Source of the DNA: a virus
DNA length: 36,762 nucleotides
IMG/VR virus record: IMGVR_UViG_3300022208_000016
Location: 1-36,762 of that record
Reading direction: 5' to 3' (one strand)
Part shown: in pieces, positions 10,441-10,992 of the stretch
Position numbering within the stretch: the stretch's first letter is position 1
Layout: each line of letters begins with the position of its first letter
Position numbers and translations under genes: made by a program
Notes under the pieces: generated by a model
What the model saw: only the letters and a program-made list of their open reading frames with translations
Databases searched by the model: none
What the model was told of the DNA's origin: nothing

Positions 10441-10586
10441 TGGCAGAGGCAAGATTCGAACCTGCATGGATGGTAAGCGGGATATGCCTGGGCTTGTTAA
10501 TCACCCGCCGGGCCAGCCGTCTACCGTGCGAACTACCATCCTTATGGAGCTACCCATTTTAGCGTCTACCATTCCGCCACTCTGCC
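10441..10586 (-). ncRNA. Extended tRNA-Leu-like RNA, 146 nt
   Basis: The 5' end GGCAGAG pairs perfectly with CTCTGCC at the 3' end, followed by A73; CCA is not encoded. After TG comes a leucine-type D arm (GCGGAATGGTAGACGC), and before the acceptor a 5-bp T arm with loop TTCGAAT. In place of a normal anticodon arm and variable arm there is a short ATGG/CCAT hairpin and a long arm closed by GGATGGTA/TACCATCC. A normal Leu tRNA is about 85-90 nt. I find no canonical 7-nt anticodon loop in register. It may be a tRNA mimic or degraded tRNA. Confidence 0.6.
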
Positions 10587-10592
10587 TATTTG

Positions 10593-10618
10593 TCCCGGCG
10601 GCAGGGATTTGAACCCTG
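10593..10618 (-). repeat. Duplicate of the 3' 26 nt of the second tRNA-like RNA
   Basis: Identical to 10840-10865 (T-arm half and acceptor 3' strand plus A73). No matching 5' part is attached. Together the two copies bracket the small gene at 10634-10813, as in att-type duplications at tRNA 3' ends. Confidence 0.8.
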
Positions 10619-10633
10619 TCAGACAAACCAGTT

Positions 10634-10813
10634 TTATTTCCCTGAGCACGCTATTCGAACAGAAACACCCACCCCAAATAGATACAGATCGACATTGATT
10701 CCTGCGTCAAATTCAACTTCGAATACTGCCATATGGAACACTTTTGTTAGCCTGTCCATAATCAGACCTGACCAGTCCTCGTGAAACCTGACATACAACG
10801 TTTTCCCTAGCAT
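10634..10813 (-). CDS. Hypothetical protein between tRNA-like repeats, 59 aa
   Basis: ATG 10813 follows AGGAGAAAGG. The 59-residue product begins MLGKTLYVRFHEDWSGLIMD and continues with alternating hydrophobic residues (HMAVFEVEFDAGINVDLYLFGVGVSVRIACSGK), reading as a small all-beta protein with an N-terminal helix. No family recognised. It is bounded on each side by the same 26-nt tRNA 3' sequence, so it may be a minimal mobile or duplicated cassette. Confidence 0.55.
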   Translation of the reverse strand: MLGKTLYVRFHEDWSGLIMDRLTKVFHMAVFEVEFDAGINVDLYLFGVGVSVRIACSGK

Positions 10814-10839
10814 AATATTACCTTTCTCCTTTTTTTATT

Positions 10840-10865
10840 TCCCGGCGGCAGGGATTTGAACCCTG
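10840..10865 (-). repeat. 26-nt repeat, tRNA-like 3' end (original copy)
   Basis: Exact partner of 10593-10618. Flanking bases differ at both ends, so the identity boundary is sharp. Confidence 0.8.
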
Positions 10866-10992
10866 CATGGATAGCACTGAACCCTTGTTAGCAGGCCCCA
10901 GTTTTGTGGTGATAGCTTGGCACCCTGCCATTCAGCATCCACAGGACTATACTATCCTGCCCCTCAGCGTCTACCTATTCCGCCACGCCGGG
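10840..10992 (-). ncRNA. Extended tRNA-Leu-like RNA, 153 nt
   Basis: Acceptor CCCGGCG/CGCCGGG is perfect, with A73 and no encoded CCA. TG plus GCGGAATAGGTAGACGC gives a leucine-type D arm. The T arm has loop TTCAAAT and a stem extendable to 6 bp. Between them are a CAGGA/TCCTG hairpin with an 8-nt loop, where an anticodon arm might sit, and a long arm made of TGGAT/ATCCA and CTGAA/TTCAG. An alternative GGATAG/CTATCC pairing corresponds to the closing helix of the sister RNA at 10441. Its 5' end abuts the stop codon of the upstream gene, so it must be cut from the operon mRNA. Confidence 0.6.

What the first reader, a model, noticed from the sequence alone, without database searches (positions are those of the whole stretch)
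10441..10992. Two oversized tRNA-Leu-like RNAs with a shared, co-varying extra arm
Both RNAs (146 and 153 nt) have perfect acceptor stems, a leucine-type D arm, T arm and A73. The anticodon/variable region is replaced by a short hairpin and a long arm. The arm-closing helix is GGATGGTA/TACCATCC in one and can be GGATAGTA/TGCTATCC in the other, with a compensatory pair change. Both share TAACAAG in the arm. No normal anticodon loop is in register. They could be tRNA mimics, decoys for host tRNA-processing enzymes, or a new phage ncRNA class.
Basis: partly seen in the sequence, partly recalled or inferred. Interest (0 to 1): 0.8.

Follow-up and report, generated by a model that had tools for sequence, protein, structure and literature searches.

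The report
Phage tRNA shells carrying variable RNA cargo
This phage makes two RNAs shaped like leucine tRNAs but with an unrelated folded RNA where the codon-reading arm should be, and hundreds of other uncultured phages carry the same constant tRNA "shell" around ever-changing cargo, which points to a large, undescribed class of viral non-coding RNA.

Summary
RNA1 is comp(10441-10586) and RNA2 is comp(10840-10992), both on the minus strand, with perfect acceptor stems, a tRNA-Leu D arm, a T arm and A73. A >=8-bp arm ends two bases before the T stem and has one compensated pair change between the two. Neither has an anticodon arm, and no excision restores one.

They are not unique. All share a tRNA-Leu shell: U48 in 91%, A73 in 79%, C74 in 80%. 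Their 33-135-nt middles fall into 212 unrelated clusters, 107 of them in the single shell AGTCAGG. One phage holds five copies with the same shell and unrelated middles. One cargo was never seen outside a tRNA shell and occurs in several shells. Compensatory changes exceed a column-shuffle null threefold. Several cargos are pseudoknots, so the "short hairpin + long arm" reading is probably wrong for RNA1 and uncertain for RNA2.

Best reading: phage non-coding RNAs that use a tRNA shell for maturation and stability and display a structured cargo, probably to bind host factors (inferred). Leucylation is possible but not universal. Separately, non-Leu phage tRNAs carry 40-60-nt introns. I found no description of either in Rfam or the papers searched.

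The parts
10441..10586 (-). RNA1: tRNA-Leu-like shell with a 96-nt cargo instead of anticodon and variable arms
   Evidence: sequence; Rfam tRNA model 31.2 bits with insert; class membership
10840..10992 (-). RNA2: second tRNA-Leu-like shell with a ~100-nt cargo; 7+6 bp acceptor/T stack
   Evidence: sequence; 13-bp subgroup
10580..10586 (-). RNA1 acceptor 5' strand GGCAGAG (pairs with 10442-10448)
10986..10992 (-). RNA2 acceptor 5' strand CCCGGCG (pairs with 10841-10847; could also pair with 10594-10600)
   Evidence: fold
10534..10541 (-). RNA1 P2 5' strand GGATGGTA
10468..10475 (-). RNA1 P2 3' strand TACCATCC, two bases before the T stem
10549..10555 (-). RNA1 candidate P1 5' strand GGGTAGC, partner GCTG(G)CCC at 10510-10517 (7 bp, one bulge), crossing P2; alternative partner for TGGGT is GCCCA at 10489-10493
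   Evidence: read from sequence; one search scores the TGGGT/GCCCA + P2 crossing pair above the nested pair (-26.0 vs -22.9, helix stacking sums only)
10950..10957 (-). RNA2 P2 5' strand GGATAGTA
10869..10876 (-). RNA2 P2 3' strand TGCTATCC
10493..10499 (-). TAACAAG motif in RNA1 cargo
   Evidence: sequence; 3 of 217 cargos hold it
10884..10890 (-). TAACAAG motif in RNA2 cargo
   Evidence: sequence
10593..10618 (-). orphan 3' shell: T arm + acceptor 3' strand + A73, identical over 26 nt to RNA2's 3' end, 7 nt upstream of RNA1
   Evidence: direct repeat D1, 100%
10634..10813 (-). small ORF (59 aa) with a GGAG upstream, between RNA2 and the orphan 3' shell; no Pfam match
   Evidence: sequence

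Best explanation
The two RNAs belong to a large class of phage non-coding RNAs built from a constant tRNA-Leu-shaped shell (acceptor, D arm, T arm, discriminator) and a variable structured cargo that replaces the anticodon and variable arms. Shown: the shell keeps what tRNA folding and 3' maturation need; the middle holds no restorable anticodon; cargos fold with covariation, several as pseudoknots; cargos differ wholly between copies that share a shell; and cargos move between shells. Inferred: the RNA is cut from a longer phage transcript by host RNase P and 3' tRNA enzymes, gets CCA, and is protected as a tRNA is. The shell is the delivery and stability scaffold, and the cargo is the working part, most likely an RNA that binds a host protein or other host factor (counter-defence or take-over). 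Diversity of that sort is what an arms race gives. The cargo's target is unknown.
For: Most of the real ones there look like Bacteroidota phages or prophages beside recombination or replication genes. Shell: acceptor pairing was required, but U48 (91%), A73 (79%) and C74 (80%) were free to vary. Genuine tRNAs of the same contigs also mostly carry C at 74 (read from the ends). No anticodon: 3.7% of cargos versus 1.7% of shuffles allow a Leu anticodon arm by excision, several of these being two adjacent tRNAs; none for RNA1 or RNA2. A contiguous arm in place is also at chance. Structure: 66 double compensations in 28 families versus 20.6 in column shuffles, and crossing compensated helices in 6 families versus 1.6. 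In family A1, 9 pairs change on both sides versus 4.3 shuffled, with the sliding control collapsing. Modularity: 212 cargo clusters among 311 RNAs, 107 in shell AGTCAGG. Within a locus 21 of 26 pairs share a shell while cargo identity is 0.39, against 0.42 for random pairs. 7 cargo clusters sit in different shells. L512 has five copies. One cargo was found in 46 contigs inside a full tRNA shell, including a non-Leu shell in L521; the rest of 70 matches were about six damaged or cut-off shells and unrelated sequence.
Against: No expression, processing or binding data. The D-arm search pattern fixes the Leu type, so how far the class extends to other shells is unknown. A pseudoknot is supported for some families only: 31% of cargos fall in the best 5% of shuffles for the anchored pseudoknot score. 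RNA2's P1 is weak. No gene recurs next to the RNAs, so nothing points to a target. No antisense match to the phage's own genome beyond chance.
Confidence: 0.6

Rival explanations
1. Leucyl-RNA: the point of the shell is to be charged with leucine by host LeuRS and to act as a charged, non-decoding RNA (a sink for LeuRS, EF-Tu or leucine, or a leucine donor). The middle merely stops decoding.
For: Bacterial LeuRS needs A73, A15-U48, G18G19 and D/T-loop contacts; E. coli tRNALeu lacking the anticodon and variable arms is still charged (review PMC9976931). U48 is kept in 91% and A73 in 79%. Both window RNAs keep all of these.
Against: 21% lack A73, including members with the commonest shell (G73); one cargo sits in a non-Leu shell (L521); the anticodon could be lost without a conserved structured cargo; about 5% have a 13-bp acceptor/T stack.
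Confidence: 0.2
2. Intron-bearing tRNA-Leu: the middle is spliced out to leave an ordinary tRNA.
For: Class-I phage tRNAs in the control scan do carry small introns: 27 of 58 restore a near-perfect anticodon arm versus 0 shuffled.
Against: The same kind of test on the Leu class is at chance, and neither window RNA has a solution. Several middles (33-36 nt) are too short to hold an intron plus anticodon and variable arms.
Confidence: 0.04
3. [quoted passage not shown]
For: Pseudoknot cargos, several per phage, rapid diversification; the precedent of phage PhiTE (PMC3475682, found; abstract only read).
Against: No sequence tie to any type III antitoxin was tested or found; cargo sizes and folds vary far more than one toxin family would need.
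Confidence: 0.1
4. Degenerate tRNA pseudogenes or tRNA genes broken by insertions, without function.
For: Phage tRNAs decay and recombine; the orphan 3' shell at 10593-10618 is such debris.
Against: Perfect acceptor stems, compensatory changes in both shell and cargo, cargo kept nearly unchanged across dozens of contigs.
Confidence: 0.04

Closest known systems
tRNA-Leu (Rfam RF00005)
   Same: acceptor, D arm, T arm, A73, U48, C74; the Rfam model scores several members above its cut-off
   Different: no anticodon arm, no register for an anticodon, cargo of 33-135 nt; cannot decode
tmRNA
   Same: a tRNA-like end joined to a long pseudoknotted RNA
   Different: full Leu D arm, no Ala G3-U70 in the window RNAs or the AGTCAGG shell, no room for a tag frame in the shortest members; one weak tmRNA match (L282, E 0.0011)
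Engineered tRNA scaffold for recombinant RNA (foreign RNA put in place of the anticodon arm; own knowledge, cf. PMC3753655)
   Same: the same architecture: tRNA shell, foreign structured RNA in place of the anticodon arm
   Different: natural, viral, with hundreds of cargos
Pseudo-tRNA tRNA-Other of Bacillus cereus (PMC3399842)
   Same: tRNA-like element not used in translation
   Different: a single element on a genomic island within longer transcripts, no variable cargo
Phage pseudo-ToxI RNAs (PMC3475682)
   Same: phage pseudoknot RNA that counters a defence
   Different: tandem repeats without tRNA shell (own knowledge), one toxin target

Membership tests
functional tRNA-Leu | acceptor, D arm and T arm with tertiary contacts | tested here: met
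functional tRNA-Leu | anticodon arm with 7-nt loop and a Leu anticodon (direct or after excision) | tested here: not met
functional tRNA-Leu | charged with leucine | not testable with these tools
   identity elements present in both window RNAs; A73 in 79% of the class
tmRNA | Ala identity pair G3-U70 | tested here: not met
   pair 3-70 is C-G in RNA1 and RNA2, U-A in AGTCAGG
tmRNA | match to Rfam tmRNA models in the window | tested here: not met
intron-containing tRNA | removal of the insert restores an anticodon arm | tested here: not met
   class-I tRNAs as positive control
type III antitoxin RNA mimic | pseudoknot units that bind a type III toxin | not tested
   pseudoknots shown for some cargos; toxin binding cannot be tested here
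any described RNA family | match in Rfam 15 other than tRNA | tested here: not met
   above cut-off only tRNA

The most novel reading that the evidence does not exclude
Phages of many hosts share an exchangeable pool of hundreds of RNA effectors, each delivered in a constant tRNA shell that host tRNA enzymes mature and protect; recombination between shells swaps cargos, giving an RNA-level counterpart of the phage counter-defence gene repertoire.
Probability: 0.35. Interest if true: 0.95.

Novelty: categorically new. Interest (0 to 1): 0.86.

Why it matters
If right, a very common viral RNA class has been missed because tools either do not call it or call it a tRNA of odd anticodon. It would be a natural version of the engineered tRNA scaffold and a source of hundreds of compact, stable, often pseudoknotted RNAs with unknown host targets, directly testable by RNA sequencing and pull-down. 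It also warns that phage 'tRNA-Leu' counts include non-tRNAs.

Tried and rejected
Removable intron in the Leu class: rejected. Contiguous anticodon arm with an oversized variable arm: at chance across the class. Antisense RNA against the phage's own genome: longest matches equal shuffles. A common neighbour gene (toxin or partner): none recurs. Known Rfam family: none above cut-off but tRNA. Close relatives of this phage through its exonuclease and capsid proteins: none found; terminase relatives at about 45% identity are mostly phages of Firmicutes. Annotated cultured phages: no convincing copy among 50,697 records with the queries tried or in five records inspected; an absence for those queries only. 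Papers: ten searches, none describing the class; bioRxiv is not held.

Full report
What is there. On the minus strand the window holds two RNAs with complete tRNA-Leu-type shells: RNA1 comp(10441-10586) and RNA2 comp(10840-10992). Both have seven-pair acceptor stems, the D arm TGGCGGAAT(A)GGTAGACGC, a T arm, U48 and A73. ARAGORN calls neither. Rfam's tRNA model finds RNA1 with an 83-nt insert. A helix of at least 8 bp ends two bases before the T stem in both; between the two RNAs one pair is compensated and one becomes G-U. Nine-pair anchored helices of this kind arise in about 2% of shuffles of each middle. RNA2 has a sixth T-stem pair, a feature shared by 10 other members of the class. Between the RNAs lie a 59-aa ORF and an orphan 3' shell identical over 26 nt to RNA2's, which looks like debris of shell duplication.

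The class. After requiring acceptor pairing, 311 RNAs remained with middles of 33-135 nt, 217 of them non-redundant. A few false positives from adjacent tRNAs remain (L133, L150, L216). In 84,980 cellular genomes the same pattern gave 33 raw hits; most of the real ones are Bacteroidota contigs or prophages, near replication and recombination genes. In the window, too, the RNAs lie near ERF recombinase and exonuclease genes.

The shell is a tRNA shell. U48 (91%), A73 (79%) and C74 (80%) were not part of the pattern. Most genuine tRNAs of the same contigs also show C74, read from the ends ARAGORN reports. The genuine tRNA-Leu genes there have different acceptors (mostly G1) and often a different D stem, while the commonest shell here is AGTCAGG with A1-U72.

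No anticodon. Allowing any excision, 3.7% of Leu-class middles and 1.7% of shuffles give a Leu anticodon arm plus a variable arm, some of these from two adjacent tRNAs; the window RNAs give none. A contiguous arm in place is also at chance. The shortest members, 33 nt, leave no room: L203 and L376 fold as H-type pseudoknots with both helices compensated.

Structure of the cargo. Across 28 families of related cargos there are 66 double compensations versus 20.6 when alignment columns are shuffled, and crossing compensated helices in 6 families versus 1.6. In the five-member family A1 three mutually crossing helices give 89% paired cells; nine pairs change on both sides (4.3 in shuffles), and sliding the partners by 1 to 3 columns collapses the fit. 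An anchored pseudoknot score puts 31% of cargos in the best 5% of their shuffles, against 16% for the nested arrangement. So pseudoknots are common but not proven for every member. In the window, RNA1 can form P1 GGGTAGC/GCTG(G)CCC or TGGGT/GCCCA crossing P2; RNA2's P1 is uncertain.

Cargos are modular. The 311 RNAs fall into 212 cargo clusters, 107 of them in the shell AGTCAGG. Copies in one locus share the shell in 21 of 26 pairs while their cargos are no more alike than random pairs. Seven clusters occur in clearly different shells. Records hold 1-4 exact D-arm matches; a looser scan finds five copies in L512. One cargo, searched by itself, gave 70 contigs: 46 in a full shell, about six in damaged or truncated shells, and the rest unrelated sequence. 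One of the 46 (L521) sits in a non-Leu shell.

How it probably works (inference). The constant part gives processing by RNase P and 3' tRNA enzymes, CCA addition and stability. The cargo is what is selected and diversified. Binding of host factors, as counter-defence or take-over, fits the diversity and the several copies per phage; no target is known. Charging with leucine is plausible because LeuRS ignores the anticodon (PMC9976931), but a fifth of members lack A73.

A separate discovery. As a control I scanned for a class-I D arm and a distant T arm. Half the hits have perfect acceptors, and 27 of 58 distinct middles restore a near-perfect anticodon arm when 40-60 nt are removed, against none of the shuffles. 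These inserts often carry CAGCAA or GTTACTT (24 of 58, 1.2 expected). They look like small introns of phage tRNAs and are a different phenomenon from the Leu class.

Limits. All evidence is comparative; no transcript has been seen. The Leu D arm was imposed by the pattern. The novelty claim rests on Rfam 15 and ten searches of an open-access library.

Noticed in passing
L391-L508 (e.g. L439, L452, L436, L395, L399): Class-I phage tRNAs with 40-60-nt introns in the anticodon arm, often between positions 28-30; removal restores e.g. Lys TTT, Pro TGG, Ile TAT arms; recurrent motifs CAGCAA and GTTACTT. Splicing mechanism unknown.
   Followed up: partly
window 10593-10618: Orphan copy of RNA2's 3' shell, 7 nt upstream of RNA1, after a 59-aa ORF.
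   Followed up: partly
L521 around 1540-1559: A cargo otherwise found in Leu shells sits in a tRNA shell with a non-Leu D arm.
   Followed up: no
L510 5110-5290: Related RNA with a tRNA-like acceptor and encoded CCA but degenerate D and T loops; P1 GACT/AGTC crosses P2 GGATTC/GAATCC.
   Followed up: partly
RNA2 and 10 other members (L017, L163, L182, L214, L260, L291, L327, L329, L377, L141): Subgroup with a 13-bp acceptor/T stack (7+6).
   Followed up: no
L282 1916-2038: Weak Rfam tmRNA match (E 0.0011) to a 123-nt stretch near other phage tRNAs.
   Followed up: no
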